Below are positions 7,357 through 10,101 of a stretch of 35,488 nucleotides of DNA, one piece after another. This stretch comes from Cellulomonas sp. B6. GTDB taxonomy: Bacteria; Actinomycetota; Actinomycetes; Actinomycetales; Cellulomonadaceae. The notes beneath the pieces were generated by a model. It was given only the letters and a program-made list of their open reading frames with translations. It did no database searches and was not told the DNA's origin. The position numbers and the translations under genes are program-made. Each line of letters starts with the position of its first letter. The first letter of the stretch is position 1. Location of the stretch: the NCBI RefSeq assembly GCF_001462455.1, contig NZ_LNTD01000166.1:1-35488 (forward strand), given 5' to 3'.

Positions 7357-7476
7357 TCACATCACCTTGCAGCAGGGCGAGGAGAGCGACGTGGTCGCAC
7401 CCGACGCCACGGTGGCACCGGCGACGCCGGAGAACGCGGCGAGGGCGACGACGAGCGCGAGGGAGAGCTTCTTCAT
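7357..7476 (-). CDS. 39-residue secreted mini-protein with terminal CC motif (candidate signalling propeptide)
   Basis: A complete ATG-to-TGA frame encodes a 39-residue peptide: MKK, a hydrophobic core (residues 4-21, LSLALVVALAAFSGVAGA), then a short polar tail ending SSPCCKVM. An AxA-type cleavage site after Ala21 would release 18 residues; later cuts would release 12-13. The start is well supported: AAAGGGG lies seven bases upstream of the ATG. The gene lies 182 bp downstream of, and on the same strand as, an XRE-TPR regulator, from which it is separated by a terminator-like hairpin, so it should have its own promoter. This layout resembles receptor-propeptide pairs of the RRNPP type. The vicinal Cys pair could instead bind metal or arsenite, given the neighbouring ArsB-like gene. 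I recognise no family. That it is a real gene is fairly sure; its function is not. Confidence 0.65.
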   Translation of the reverse strand: MKKLSLALVVALAAFSGVAGATVASGATTSLSSPCCKVM

Positions 7477-7574
7477 GGTGGGACCCCTTTGAACGGTGCA
7501 CCGGACTTTCCGGCACCCCGGCATGGTCCCCACGTCCGTGTCGTGACCGCAATGACTAACGACAGACCGGGGTA

Positions 7575-7608
7575 GACACTCCCGGGTCGGCCGTCACCCG
7601 GGCGTGTC
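7575..7608 (-). terminator. Terminator hairpin after the XRE-TPR regulator
   Basis: GACAC, one mismatch, CCCGGGT (7575-7587) pair with ACCCGGG, one mismatch, GTGTC (7596-7608), a 13-position stem with an eight-base loop. It starts about 50 bases past the regulator stop and separates it from the peptide gene. Confidence 0.6.
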
Positions 7609-7658
7609 GGGCGCACGGCCTCCGGCGCCTGACGTCGCCCGGACGGACGCGCGGCCGC

Positions 7659-8963
7659 TCAGGCGCGCACGACCCCGACGCCCGCGGCGTCGATCGCCCG
7701 GCGGTAGGCCGCGGCGACGTGCGCGCCGTCGTCGCCGGCGGCACGCAGCCGGTCACCCAGCCGACGCCACGACCGCGCGGTCGGACGCCCCGCGGGTGCG
7801 AGCTCGAGACGGTCCGCGACCTGGCGGTACGCCTTGATCGCGGCCGTGCGCTCCCCCGCCGCCAGCAGCGCGTCGCCGAGCGCCTCGTGCGCCGCCGCGG
7901 CGTCGCGCCGCTCACCGGCGAGCATCTCGACGGCGCGAGCCGCGTGCGCGAGCGCCGCACGGTGCTGCCCCAGCAGGAGCGTCGCGCGCGACCGGATGGT
8001 CGCGGCGCGCGCCAGCTCCACCTGCGACTCGCCGACCTCGAGGGCGGTGGCGGCCGCGTCGAGCTCGGCGAGCGCCTCGCGGGGGCGCGGCGGGTCGACG
8101 GTGAGCAGCAGCTGCGCGAGGTCGAGGCGCAGCCGCGGCACGTTGCGCTCGACCTCGTCCCCGCCCGCGATCGCGAGCGCCGAGCGCAGGTGGGACAGCG
8201 CGTCGTCGGCGTCGCCGAGCGCGTCGTCCACGAACGCCAGGTTCCAGTGCACCGACCAGACGGCGCGCGCAGAGCCGTGCACGAGAGCACGGCCGAGCAG
8301 GTCCTGGCCGCGCACGCGCGCGTAGGTGACGTCGCCTCGCGCGACGTACGCCCACACGAGCGTCGACTCCAGCCGGAAGATCTCGTCGGTGCCGGCGGCG
8401 AGGCCGGCGAGCGTCGCGAGGTGCTCCTCGCCCGTGCGCACCGCGGCGTGCAGGTCACCGGCCTCCGTGAGGGCCATGACCAGGCGCGTCGCGGCGTACG
8501 TCGCGCGCTCGGGGCGGTGGCCAACCACCAGCCGGTGCGTGACGTCGGCGAGCAGGCGCGCGGACGTCTCGAGGTCACCCGCGAGGTCGAGCGCCTCGGC
8601 ACGGGCCAGCAGGACCTTCGCGGCCTGGTCGACGTCGAGCGCCGCGAGCTCGACGCCCTCGAGCTCGACGGCAGCGTCGGCGGCCCGCCCGGCGCGCATG
8701 AGCTGCCGCGCACGGACGAGGGCCGCCTCGGACTCCAGGTACTCGGGCGAGCGGTCGCCCTGCTCGAGGTACTGCGCCGTGACCCCGAGCGCACGCGCCA
8801 GGCGCACGAGCGCGGCGTCACCCGGCCCCCGCACGCCGCGCTCGAGGTGCGAGACATAGCTGGGGTGCATCATCGCCGCGCGCGCGAGATCGGCCTGGGA
8901 CAGGCCGCTGCGCTCACGGGCGTCACGGATGCGTTCACTGACGGGGTGCACGGATATCACCAT
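7659..8963 (-). CDS. XRE-family HTH regulator with TPR repeats (RRNPP-like architecture)
   Basis: This cytoplasmic 434-residue protein has an XRE/Cro-C1 helix-turn-helix at about residues 9-66 (SERIRDARERSGLSQADLA, then SYVSHLERG) and a long alpha-helical C-terminal part (about 75-430) made of TPR-like helix pairs, for example residues 300-400. This is the plan of RRNPP peptide receptors (PlcR, Rgg, PrgX), and also of many uncharacterised actinobacterial regulators. The ATG at 8963 is used; GTG at the next codon is equally possible. No Shine-Dalgarno is visible, so the mRNA may be leaderless or weakly translated. A perfect 12-bp palindrome touches the start and a second inverted repeat lies 50 bp upstream, suggesting autoregulation. 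Its downstream same-strand neighbour is the secreted mini-protein. Confidence 0.85.
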   Translation of the reverse strand: MVISVHPVSERIRDARERSGLSQADLARAAMMHPSYVSHLERGVRGPGDAALVRLARALGVTAQYLEQGDRSPEYLESEAALVRARQLMRAGRAADAAVELEGVELAALDVDQAAKVLLARAEALDLAGDLETSARLLADVTHRLVVGHRPERATYAATRLVMALTEAGDLHAAVRTGEEHLATLAGLAAGTDEIFRLESTLVWAYVARGDVTYARVRGQDLLGRALVHGSARAVWSVHWNLAFVDDALGDADDALSHLRSALAIAGGDEVERNVPRLRLDLAQLLLTVDPPRPREALAELDAAATALEVGESQVELARAATIRSRATLLLGQHRAALAHAARAVEMLAGERRDAAAAHEALGDALLAAGERTAAIKAYRQVADRLELAPAGRPTARSWRRLGDRLRAAGDDGAHVAAAYRRAIDAAGVGVVRA

Positions 8964-8964
8964 A

Positions 8965-9003: not shown

Positions 9004-9014
9004 TCGTGTCACGA
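9004..9014. promoter_or_regulatory. Inverted repeat upstream of the XRE-TPR gene
   Basis: TCGTG and CACGA flank a single T, about 40-50 bp upstream of the regulator start. The overlapping 8-mer GTCGTGAC (minus strand, 9015-9008) recurs at 7540-7547 on the plus strand, upstream of the peptide gene. It is a candidate common operator. Confidence 0.3.
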
Positions 9015-9072
9015 CGACGGTGACCGATCCGTCCGCAACGCACGCGGAAGCGACGAATCGGCACCCGACGTG

Positions 9073-10101
9073 TCAGATCTCACCCTGCGCGGACGCGGGC
9101 GTGGGGGTAGGCGCGGCCGTGGGAGCGGGCGCGGCCACGTGGCGCTCGCGGGTGATCCCGGTGCGCCGCGCGAGCACCTCGACCAGGCCGACGAACGCGA
9201 GGTTCGACGCGGTCGACACGGTCAGCGCGACGGGTCCGACGTCGACGAGGTCGAGGTCGGCCAGGCCCACGGCGCCGAGCGAGAACACGACGAGGTTGTT
9301 GACGACGTGCGCCGCGGAGGCCGCCTCGAGCCCGCCCGTGCGCCACGTGAGCCAGCCCATCGCGAGCGCCCAGACCGCGATGTCGACCATCGCGAGGTTG
9401 ACGTACTCGTGGCCGAGCACGAACAGCGGCACGGGCAGCACGATCGCGAACGCGGGGTGCCGCAGCCACGTGCCGACGGTCTGCAGGAGGTACCCGCGGA
9501 ACACGACCTCCTCGGCGACGCACTGCGCGGGCACGAGCAGCAGCGCGAGCCCGATCAGCAGCCACGACGTCCCGTCGACCTGCGGCTGCCACGCCCGGCC
9601 GGACGCCGCGGCGACGACCGCGTCACCCGTCTGGACCACGAGCGCGAGCCCGGCCGCGAGCGCGAGGCAGCGCGCGGCCCACGTCCAGCGCACGCGCCCG
9701 GCGACCGAGGCCAGCAGCCCCACGGGCCGTGCCCCGAGCAGCCGGGTCGCGACGAGCACGGCGGGCAGCAGCGCGATGATCGACAGCATCGCGACCACGA
9801 AGGTCAGCGGGTCGCTGAAGTCGGTGACGTCCAGGTCGTTCAGGGCGTCCCACCCGTCAGGACCGTTGGCGACCGCGGTGGCGACGGCGACCGCGATGCC
9901 GACGACGTGCAGGGCGACGTACAGCGCGAGCGCCACGAGACCCACCAGCAGCGGGCGCCACCAGCGCGTGCCGGGGCGCGTGCGCTGCAGCCGGTGGTAG
10001 GCGTAGGTGCCGGGCGCCTCGAGCGTGCGCCGCGGCACGGGGACGGCGGTCGCGCGGCCCGGCGGCGGGACGGGGGCGGGGGCGACGGACGAGGTGCTCA
10101 C
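9073..10101 (-). CDS. CPBP family intramembrane metalloprotease
   Basis: This 342-residue membrane protein has about eight hydrophobic segments and the full CAAX-protease/bacteriocin-processing signature: EEVVFRGYL (E197, E198, R202), LFVLGHEYVN (H231) and HVVNN (H265, N269), the residues that hold the catalytic metal and water in Rce1-type enzymes. The N-terminal 45 residues are Pro/Ala-rich and cytosolic; the C-terminus is Pro/Ala-rich too. The GTG at 10101 (VSTSSVAPAP) is preferred over a much longer in-frame extension, whose sequence is low-complexity and overlaps the radical SAM gene on the other strand. The upstream site is weak. The substrate is unknown; family members process peptides, act in immunity to bacteriocins, or cleave anti-sigma factors. 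The gene stands alone and diverges from the radical SAM gene across 121 bp. Confidence 0.85.
   Translation of the reverse strand: MSTSSVAPAPVPPPGRATAVPVPRRTLEAPGTYAYHRLQRTRPGTRWWRPLLVGLVALALYVALHVVGIAVAVATAVANGPDGWDALNDLDVTDFSDPLTFVVAMLSIIALLPAVLVATRLLGARPVGLLASVAGRVRWTWAARCLALAAGLALVVQTGDAVVAAASGRAWQPQVDGTSWLLIGLALLLVPAQCVAEEVVFRGYLLQTVGTWLRHPAFAIVLPVPLFVLGHEYVNLAMVDIAVWALAMGWLTWRTGGLEAASAAHVVNNLVVFSLGAVGLADLDLVDVGPVALTVSTASNLAFVGLVEVLARRTGITRERHVAAPAPTAAPTPTPASAQGEI

What the first reader, a model, noticed from the sequence alone, without database searches (positions are those of the whole stretch)
7357..8963. XRE-TPR regulator followed by a secreted 39-residue peptide: a possible RRNPP-like signalling pair in an actinobacterium
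A 434-residue HTH-TPR protein is followed, on the same strand and 182 bp downstream, by a mini-gene with a strong ribosome binding site that encodes a signal peptide and a 12-18 residue tail ending PCCKVM. Receptor plus downstream secreted propeptide is the layout of PlcR-PapR and Rgg-SHP systems in Firmicutes. The genes are separated by a terminator, so the peptide can be controlled separately. The 8-mer GTCGTGAC occurs upstream of both genes. The peptide is easily missed by gene callers. An alternative is a metal-binding exported peptide, since CC sites bind arsenite and the next gene is ArsB-like.
Basis: partly seen in the sequence, partly recalled or inferred. Interest (0 to 1): 0.75.

Follow-up and report, generated by a model that had tools for sequence, protein, structure and literature searches.

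The report
Actinobacterial receptor–pheromone peptide gene pair
A gene for a DNA-binding protein sits beside a tiny gene for a probably secreted peptide, and related pairs recur in many actinobacteria, which suggests a so far unnoticed family of peptide signals by which these bacteria may sense one another.

Summary
The 39-residue peptide ORF and the XRE-TPR regulator are where stated. Among 98 genomes, all 21 close orthologues of the regulator, all in the window's genus, have one to four signal-peptide-like ORFs with a PCCK tail downstream on the same strand. In 67 of 67 named loci, mostly Cellulomonas, a dicysteine peptide lies within 1.5 kb; reversed copies gave 1 hit against 78 real. Other actinobacterial families keep the pairing in 60 of 90 regulators checked, often with tails ending exactly in CC, seven times without CC. 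In other classes of the phylum 17 of 24 loci have 28-34 residue peptides ending in motifs such as YPWPK or PWPHCC. The peptides evolve as coding sequence (dN/dS 0.28-0.74). The receptor model has nine TPRs, and PlcR:PapR is among its structural matches. Best reading: an RRNPP-like system of secreted pheromone and cytoplasmic receptor; binding, reimport and regulon are inferred. Arsenite binding is unlikely: the ArsB-like gene neighbours 2 of 21 pairs.

The parts
7357..7476 (-). 39-codon propeptide gene: signal-peptide-like N-terminus (MKKLSLALVVALAAFSGVAGATVASGA) and tail TTSLSSPCCKVM
   Evidence: homologues with PCCK tail beside all 21 subfamily A regulators; dN/dS below 1. Export and cleavage site are inferred from composition; no signal-peptide predictor was available
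7659..8963 (-). XRE HTH + nine-TPR regulator, the putative receptor. Probable true start is GTG at 8951 (leaderless)
   Evidence: AlphaFold2 pLDDT 90.9; PlcR:PapR match; conserved -10-like box and GTG
7575..7608 (-). hairpin between regulator stop and peptide promoter, GACAC-GCCCGGGT...ACCCGGG-GTGTC; terminator-like without a T run
   Evidence: fold of 7570-7658; similar sequence in the ten-locus alignment; no T-run terminator
7539..7556 (-). element GTCATTGCGGTCACGACA in front of the peptide gene, containing the dyad-like TGTCGTGACC on the other strand; candidate operator or promoter
   Evidence: alignment (GTCATTGC in 10 of 10, GTCACGACA in 6 of 10, TCACGACA in 7 of 10); only exact copy in the own genome; dyad matched
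8959..8964 (-). -10-like box TATGGT (TATCGT in relatives) 7 nt before the conserved GTG start of the regulator
   Evidence: alignments; inferred
9008..9015 (-). GTCGTGAC upstream of the regulator; core CGTGAC aligned in 10 of 10 A1-clade loci
   Evidence: candidate autoregulatory site, weak evidence
9073..10101 (-). CPBP/Rce1-like intramembrane protease gene upstream, same strand. Neighbour in the A1 clade only; conceivably a processing enzyme, but not part of the core pair
   Evidence: PF02517, E 4.7e-15, window copy only; same cluster in 9 of 21 subfamily A loci

Best explanation
The pair is a self-contained peptide-signalling module that works like the RRNPP systems of Firmicutes. The small gene makes a propeptide exported through Sec by its signal sequence; signal peptidase, and perhaps a further protease, releases a short C-terminal peptide (here within TTSLSSPCCKVM). 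The peptide accumulates outside, is taken up again by an oligopeptide permease, and binds the concave face of the nine-TPR superhelix of the HTH regulator. This changes the regulator's DNA binding at the promoter of the peptide gene (autoregulation) and at unknown targets. Shown by sequence: the two genes, their conserved pairing, coding constraint on the peptide, tails that differ by clade, predicted TPR fold, a promoter dyad in some clades. Inferred: export, maturation, reimport, binding, regulation.
For: Pairing: 21 of 21 subfamily A regulators carry 1-4 PCCK peptides downstream. Of 23 more distant loci (L069-L088, L111, L112, L114), 22 carry a CC peptide (L111, with CC far from its C-terminus; L112 lacks one). 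67 of 67 named loci carry one. In other families of the class, of 90 regulators checked, 53 have a CC peptide (52 by the scanner after dropping a spurious one at L241, plus L151 found by eye) and 7 have a same-place peptide with another tail. In other classes, 17 of 24 loci have a 28-34 residue peptide with an aromatic-Pro tail (pattern chosen after seeing them) and 2 more a WSDGH tail. Controls: 1 hit in 475,777 reversed bases against 78 real; for the aromatic-Pro tails 0 in the reversed loci and 0 in 252,508 background bases. dN/dS 0.28-0.74. Gene order and strand vary while the pair stays. AlphaFold2 model read as nine TPR hairpins; Foldseek finds PlcR:PapR7:DNA 3u3w at E 1.9e-6; the A1 profile hits PlcR over positions 3-187, E 1.4e-7. 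Helix-A positions are on average more conserved than helix B (1.68 vs 1.45 bits), with W240 and W399 the two highest and N241 also high. The dyad TGTCRTGACA lies upstream of 20 of 25 peptides of one family (null 1%) and of 6 of 10 A1-clade peptides. The own genome has 6 SBP_bac_5 genes.
Against: No binding, secretion or expression data. One regulator clade (17 of 17 loci, L160 and L254-L269) and 11 other regulators have no convincing peptide nearby (L160, L163 and L260 show unconvincing short ORFs). Of nine plasmid or phage records opened, six showed no CC peptide beside the regulator (L272, L274, L275, L276, L278, L279). Two genomes (G030, G056) have a PCCK peptide and no regulator at E up to 1e-20. 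PlcR disappears when only the 21 A sequences are used as profile. The best Foldseek matches are eukaryotic TPR proteins. In all four sets tested the signal segment is more constrained than the tail, and the A-clade tails are near neutral overall. Among the 40 most conserved positions, helices A and B have 8 each. The dyad is hardly or not enriched in the mixed CC-end group (2 of 34) and other classes (1 of 18). The regulon is unknown: the promoter element has no convincing second copy in the genome.
Confidence: 0.75

Rival explanations
1. The secreted peptide is an effector (antimicrobial, RiPP-like or surface-active peptide) whose gene is controlled by the neighbouring regulator; the regulator senses something else and does not bind the peptide.
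For: Tandem arrays of up to four peptides behind one regulator (L107, L108) and five in C. massiliensis (L179) would suit an effector; two genomes hold a PCCK peptide without a detected regulator.
Against: No family besides the regulator is a consistent neighbour across the groups, so no consistent modification or immunity gene was seen (the families were not annotated one by one). The part left after the membrane segment in other classes is only a few residues (inferred). The pairing is kept while tails change. Tandem propeptides are also known in RRNPPA systems (title and start of abstract of PMC11343458, seen in the listing).
Confidence: 0.15
2. The CC tail is an exported metal- or arsenite-binding peptide tied to the ArsB-like neighbour; the regulator is a metal-stress regulator.
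For: ArsB/CitMHS-like gene next door; CC is a plausible soft-metal ligand (established knowledge).
Against: The ArsB-like gene is a neighbour in only 2 of 21 orthologous loci. Relatives keep the pair with tails lacking cysteine. The window regulator has no cysteine (sequence).
Confidence: 0.03
3. Toxin-antitoxin-like pair: a small hydrophobic membrane peptide repressed by the XRE protein.
For: Small hydrophobic peptide beside an XRE repressor-like protein; very short forms in other classes; the hydrophobic segment is more constrained than the tail in all four sets.
Against: The fixed signature residues lie in the C-terminal tail (PCCK beside all 21 A regulators; tail profiles). A nine-TPR domain is not needed for an antitoxin. 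A PCCK peptide is present without a detected regulator in two genomes.
Confidence: 0.05
4. Leader peptide for cysteine-responsive attenuation, or a chance ORF.
For: In subfamily B the CC ORF lies upstream of the regulator on the same strand, and Cys codons stand near its end.
Against: In the window and the other subfamily A loci it is downstream of the regulator; in many other families it is divergent. Some tails have no Cys. Signal-like start and coding constraint. Controls show far fewer chance hits.
Confidence: 0.01

Closest known systems
PlcR-PapR (Bacillus cereus group, RRNPP)
   Same: XRE HTH plus TPR regulator followed by a short secreted propeptide whose C-terminal end is the signal (recalled); structural match 3u3w/2qfc and weak sequence match over HTH plus first TPRs.
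   Different: Other phylum; nine TPRs, longer than PlcR (434 aa against PlcR chains of 280-293 residues); tails with CC or Trp-Pro unlike PapR's (PapR7 is ADLPFEF, abstract start in the listing); no PlcR hit with the narrower profile.
Rgg-SHP and ComR-ComS (streptococci, RRNPP)
   Same: Short hydrophobic propeptides next to or divergent from the receptor; conserved C-terminal residues; orphan receptors occur (recalled).
   Different: No Rgg-type family match of the window protein in Pfam or NCBIfam; ComR matches only in the HTH; dicysteine tails.
NprR-NprX / Rap-Phr / AimR-AimP (RRNPPA)
   Same: TPR superhelix of 5-9 repeats reading short peptides (PMC9765709, passages read).
   Different: Not among the 60 of 130 PDB rows shown; viral contigs gave HTH-only matches, and phages one partial hit in an unverified fecal record.
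RamB-type XRE-TPR regulators of actinobacteria (NF038139)
   Same: HTH matched weakly; similar general architecture (recalled).
   Different: Score far below cut-off (28.1 against 700 bits).

Membership tests
RRNPP(A) peptide-receptor systems | 5-9 tandem TPRs forming a superhelix with a concave face | tested here: met
   AlphaFold2 model, mean pLDDT 90.9, helices after the HTH that I pair into nine hairpins; TPR_2 in 42 of 44 members at E up to 1. The 5-9 figure is from PMC9765709. The concave face was not inspected in coordinates.
RRNPP(A) peptide-receptor systems | N-terminal XRE-type HTH (most subfamilies) | tested here: met
   HTH_3 in 44 of 44
RRNPP(A) peptide-receptor systems | Adjacent short propeptide gene with export signal | tested here: met
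   export signal by composition only
RRNPP(A) peptide-receptor systems | Sequence membership of a described subfamily (PlcR, Rgg, ComR, NprR, PrgX, Rap, AimR) | tested here: not met
   No such Pfam or NCBIfam family for the window protein (part B shows 25 of 45 families); PlcR hit with profile A1 (E 1.4e-7) but not with A2. Not filed in any named subfamily.
RRNPP(A) peptide-receptor systems | Mature peptide binds the TPR groove and changes activity | not testable with these tools
   Needs binding assays or co-structure; the fold tool takes single natural proteins only
RRNPP(A) peptide-receptor systems | Reimport by oligopeptide permease | tested here: inconclusive
   6 SBP_bac_5 matches in the own genome; presence only, and the family is common (11 of 14 control genomes)
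RRNPP(A) peptide-receptor systems | Autoregulation of the propeptide promoter | tested here: inconclusive
   Dyad TGTCRTGACA (at least 9 of 10 bases) before 20 of 25 f38 peptides and 6 of 10 A1-clade peptides; 1 of 18 in other classes and 2 of 34 in the mixed CC-end group
Arsenic or metal resistance module | Conserved linkage to a metal transporter | tested here: not met
   ArsB-like cluster in 2 of 21 subfamily A loci

The most novel reading that the evidence does not exclude
Actinomycetota as a phylum possess an ancient, previously undescribed family of peptide-pheromone systems: an XRE-nine-TPR receptor with its own adjacent propeptide, whose pheromone ends in a dicysteine (PCCK, GxxGCC[KR], -CC-COOH) or in a Trp/Pro motif. 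The tails diverge by clade like pherotypes. The dicysteine, likely oxidised outside and reduced inside, would make the signal redox-sensitive.
Probability: 0.6. Interest if true: 0.93.

Novelty: new variant of a known kind. Interest (0 to 1): 0.85.

Why it matters
In the papers that I could search, RRNPP peptide signalling is described for Firmicutes (PMC10075063 introduction; PMC9765709 passages; PMC13220807 passages), and actinobacterial signals are called typically small molecules (PMC10075063), although a 2016 review passage also speaks of cyclic or modified peptides (PMC4748050). A short propeptide beside a TPR regulator, traceable through families and classes of the phylum, would give these organisms (including antibiotic producers) a genetically encoded pheromone system. 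It would predict the signal sequence for each receptor and make peptide communication in actinobacteria directly testable with synthetic peptides. Such genes are easily missed by gene callers (inference; the CC ORF is annotated, as a hypothetical protein, in two of the nine records opened, L273 and L280).

Tried and rejected
Rejected as sole explanation: arsenite or metal binding (neighbour not conserved; Cys-free tails); leader-peptide attenuation (gene order excludes it in subfamily A and in divergent loci); chance ORF (controls). Shared 8-mer as evidence by count: rejected, 8 found against 6.2 expected. Intrinsic terminator with T run: not found. CAAX-like reading of CKVM next to a CPBP/Rce1-like protease: considered and dropped, because most relatives' tails do not fit C-a-a-X and the protease is linked in only 9 of 21 loci. 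Search for a regulon with the promoter element: only its own site exact, two places with 3 mismatches not followed. Phage-borne copies: viral contigs gave 7 loci, all HTH-only matches; one partial hit in an unverified fecal phage record with no peptide seen. Hit G060 was judged spurious (25-residue partial match). Differences between CC-tail and Trp-tail receptors are suggestive only: 14 positions, 6 in helix A, not tested against chance. In one search, L290, L291, L302 and L306 show no candidate peptide and L305 one of unclear status (tail GGGFVDGS); not pursued. 13 weaker rows were not fetched.

Full report
The observation. The peptide ORF lies at 7357-7476 on the minus strand and the regulator ORF at 7659-8963 on the same strand, 182 bp apart. 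The regulator has an XRE HTH (HTH_3, E 1.3e-15) and weak TPR matches. Of 98 genomes (own included), 24 matched the 39-residue peptide at E up to 0.1; 23 are in the window's genus (60 genomes including its own) and one, G060, I judge spurious. The nearest named relatives are Cellulomonas species; the C. iranensis regulator is 94% identical.

Pairing within the genus. The regulator search gave two subfamilies. Subfamily A (about 58% identity or more) is in 21 of 98 genomes, all of the genus. In 21 of 21 a short ORF with a ribosome-binding sequence, a signal-peptide-like start and a PCCK tail begins 101-348 bp beyond the regulator stop on the same strand. Six loci have two in tandem and two loci (G006, G010) have four. 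Subfamily B (about 40%) includes a second regulator in the window's own genome, on contig C85; it has a different CC peptide upstream, MKHLASALAALAIVGSLAVATPVVTASATLNGGASGCCKDFH (L069). Of 23 loci checked beyond subfamily A (L069-L088, L111, L112, L114), 22 have a CC peptide beside the regulator; L112 has none, and at L111 the CC lies about 30 residues before the end. Two genomes (G030, G056) hold a PCCK peptide with no regulator at the threshold used.

Named genomes and controls. A genome-contig scan with the regulator alignment gave 67 loci, mostly Cellulomonas, with Cellulosimicrobium, Actinotalea, Streptomyces sp. SID12488, a Streptosporangiaceae strain and several MAGs. In 67 of 67 the scanner (ribosome-binding sequence, signal-like start, CC in the last 12 residues) finds a peptide within 1.5 kb. 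The scan selects regulators with a conserved motif, so this is not a prevalence estimate. The same scanner found 1 hit in 475,777 reversed bases of those loci against 78 in the real ones, and 3 hits in 284,042 bases of other sequence. One of those three is the own subfamily B peptide, and the other two are copies of one 84-residue ORF.

Other families of the class. The regulator profile hits 77 of 394 genomes at E up to 1e-20, in 35 of 138 genera, own included. I examined 90 of the 103 match rows other than the window genome's own (29 loci; 13 weaker rows not fetched). The scanner, with CC allowed in the last 16 residues, reports 53 of 90 with a peptide within 0.9 kb. I drop L241, a long ORF 662 bp away, as spurious, and add L151, found by eye, which again makes 53. 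Seven loci (L234, L241, L244, L245, L246, L247, L251) have a divergent signal-peptide-like ORF at the same place whose tail has no CC, such as SFGWNHPG, QAGPWGYPI, IQSIGWVYPG or RIQLGPLNNAE. Seventeen loci of one paralogue clade (L160, L254-L269) have no convincing peptide, 11 others have none, and 2 are cut by a contig end near the regulator. In these families the peptide is often divergent from the regulator, as in family f38 about 75-121 bp from the start of the regulator match, and often ends in CC exactly. Among 168 distinct CC peptides (two known spurious ORFs dropped), 58 end in CC, with Phe, Trp, Tyr or Met at the preceding place in 37 of 58; 43 carry PCCK and 54 GCC[KRWL], with Gly four places before the first Cys in 54 of 54 (the sets are defined by the letters named).

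Plasmid and phage records. A f38 regulator query finds 16 plasmid records (14 Streptomyces) and 1 phage record. Of nine opened, three have a CC ORF beside the regulator: two Streptomyces plasmids, where it is annotated as a hypothetical protein ending IPLCC, and the Nonomuraea record; six do not.

Other classes of the phylum. A 396-genome sample gave 23 genomes with the regulator at E up to 1e-30, own and one of the same class included. Of 24 loci outside the window's class, 17 have a 28-34 residue ORF with a signal-like start and an aromatic-Pro tail, for example GYPWPK, NWPKH, KWPWG, PWPHCC or PFPGCCG; the pattern was chosen after I had seen them. The same rule gives 0 hits in the reversed loci and 0 in 252,508 background bases. 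Two more loci have WSDGH tails, one (L305) an unclear candidate, and four none.

Coding constraint and tree. Summed pairwise dN/dS of the peptide (Nei-Gojobori, equal-length orthologues only: 7, 8, 11 and 14 sequences) is 0.67 and 0.74 in the two A clades, 0.28 in a B clade and 0.45 in f38. The signal part is 0.56, 0.62, 0.21 and 0.39; the tail is 0.89, 0.94, 0.42 and 0.50. The tail is thus the faster part in each set, and in the A clades nearly free to change outside the fixed PCCK. On a tree of 164 regulators the tail types follow the receptor clades by eye (103 CC, 19 aromatic-Pro, 39 none, 2 at contig ends, 1 other, by an automatic label that misses some, such as L273 and L280); no statistical test of this was run.

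Receptor. AlphaFold2 on the 44-row alignment gives mean pLDDT 90.9: an HTH followed by helices that I read as nine TPRs. Foldseek's best PDB matches are eukaryotic TPR proteins; PlcR with PapR is in the top 50 at E 1.9e-6 and 1.6e-5. The A1 profile reaches PlcR over positions 3-187 at E 1.4e-7, but the narrower A2 profile does not. Helix A of the TPRs is on average more conserved than helix B (1.68 against 1.45 bits), and W399 and W240 are the two highest positions, but the 40 most conserved positions hold 8 of each kind. I have no co-structure and could not model a complex.

Promoters. In the ten A1-clade loci the intergenic region keeps a hairpin-like sequence, GTCATTGC in 10 of 10 and GTCACGACA in 6 of 10; the hairpin was folded for the window only. 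A dyad TGTCRTGACA with at least 9 of 10 bases is upstream of 20 of 25 f38 peptides (shuffle rate 1%), and those f38 sequences are closely related. It is enriched but not general in subfamilies A (15%, null 1.4%) and B (17%, null 2.8%), and rare in the mixed CC-end group (2 of 34) and other classes (1 of 18). The regulator start appears leaderless: TATCGT, then GTG 6-7 nt later, in relatives, so the 434-residue reading is probably four residues too long.

Neighbours. No family besides the regulator is a consistent neighbour across the phylogenetic groups (clusters of a simple ORF picker). The ArsB-like gene is present in 2 of 21 subfamily A loci and the CPBP protease in 9 of 21. The unit that persists is regulator plus peptide.

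Mechanism and known systems. The parts list, the C-terminal signature, tandem propeptides, tail switching with retained pairing and the TPR fold fit a secreted pheromone read by a cytoplasmic receptor, as in RRNPP systems. It works like them; I do not file it in any named subfamily, since no such family profile matched the window protein. Ten literature searches and passages of five papers (PMC10075063, PMC9765709, PMC13220807, PMC13419125, PMC4748050) showed me no such system in actinobacteria; where the passages place RRNPP, it is in Firmicutes or in Gram-positive bacteria in general. The library lacks preprints and most subscription papers, so priority cannot be excluded.

Noticed in passing
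G000 contig C85 (L069 4688-4816 and 4967-6295): The same genome carries a second receptor-peptide pair with a different tail (GGASGCCKDFH), peptide upstream of the regulator; useful for testing cross-talk.
   Followed up: partly
L160, L254-L269: A paralogous regulator clade in one actinobacterial family (f35, probably Streptosporangiaceae-like) has no convincing peptide nearby (17 of 17); possible orphan receptors.
   Followed up: partly
L234, L241, L244-L247, L251: Receptors whose divergent peptide has no dicysteine and mostly carries Trp/Gly/Pro-rich tails: a natural tail switch.
   Followed up: partly
L125, L129, L132, L134: A second CC peptide (ending PDGGSDFCC, PDGGSDYCC or PDGGSLYCC) lies on the other side of the regulator in some f38 genomes.
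   Followed up: no
L109 9245-9367, L110 683-805: Solitary PCCK peptide without a detected regulator; neighbours look like a DUF222/HNH gene (L109) and an HxlR gene (names recalled, not from a family search); possible eavesdropping signal or relic.
   Followed up: partly
L077, L079: Two tandem regulators with one CC peptide between them.
   Followed up: no
L273, L280: Streptomyces plasmid copies: the regulator is followed by an annotated hypothetical protein (WP_008741297.1 in L280) ending IPLCC and a second small secreted-looking protein without CC.
   Followed up: partly
window 9073-10101: CPBP/Rce1-like intramembrane protease directly upstream of the regulator in 9 of 21 subfamily A loci; could process the propeptide.
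   Followed up: partly
MT836207.1 275-1069: Regulator-like partial hit in an unverified fecal phage record; no peptide seen.
   Followed up: partly
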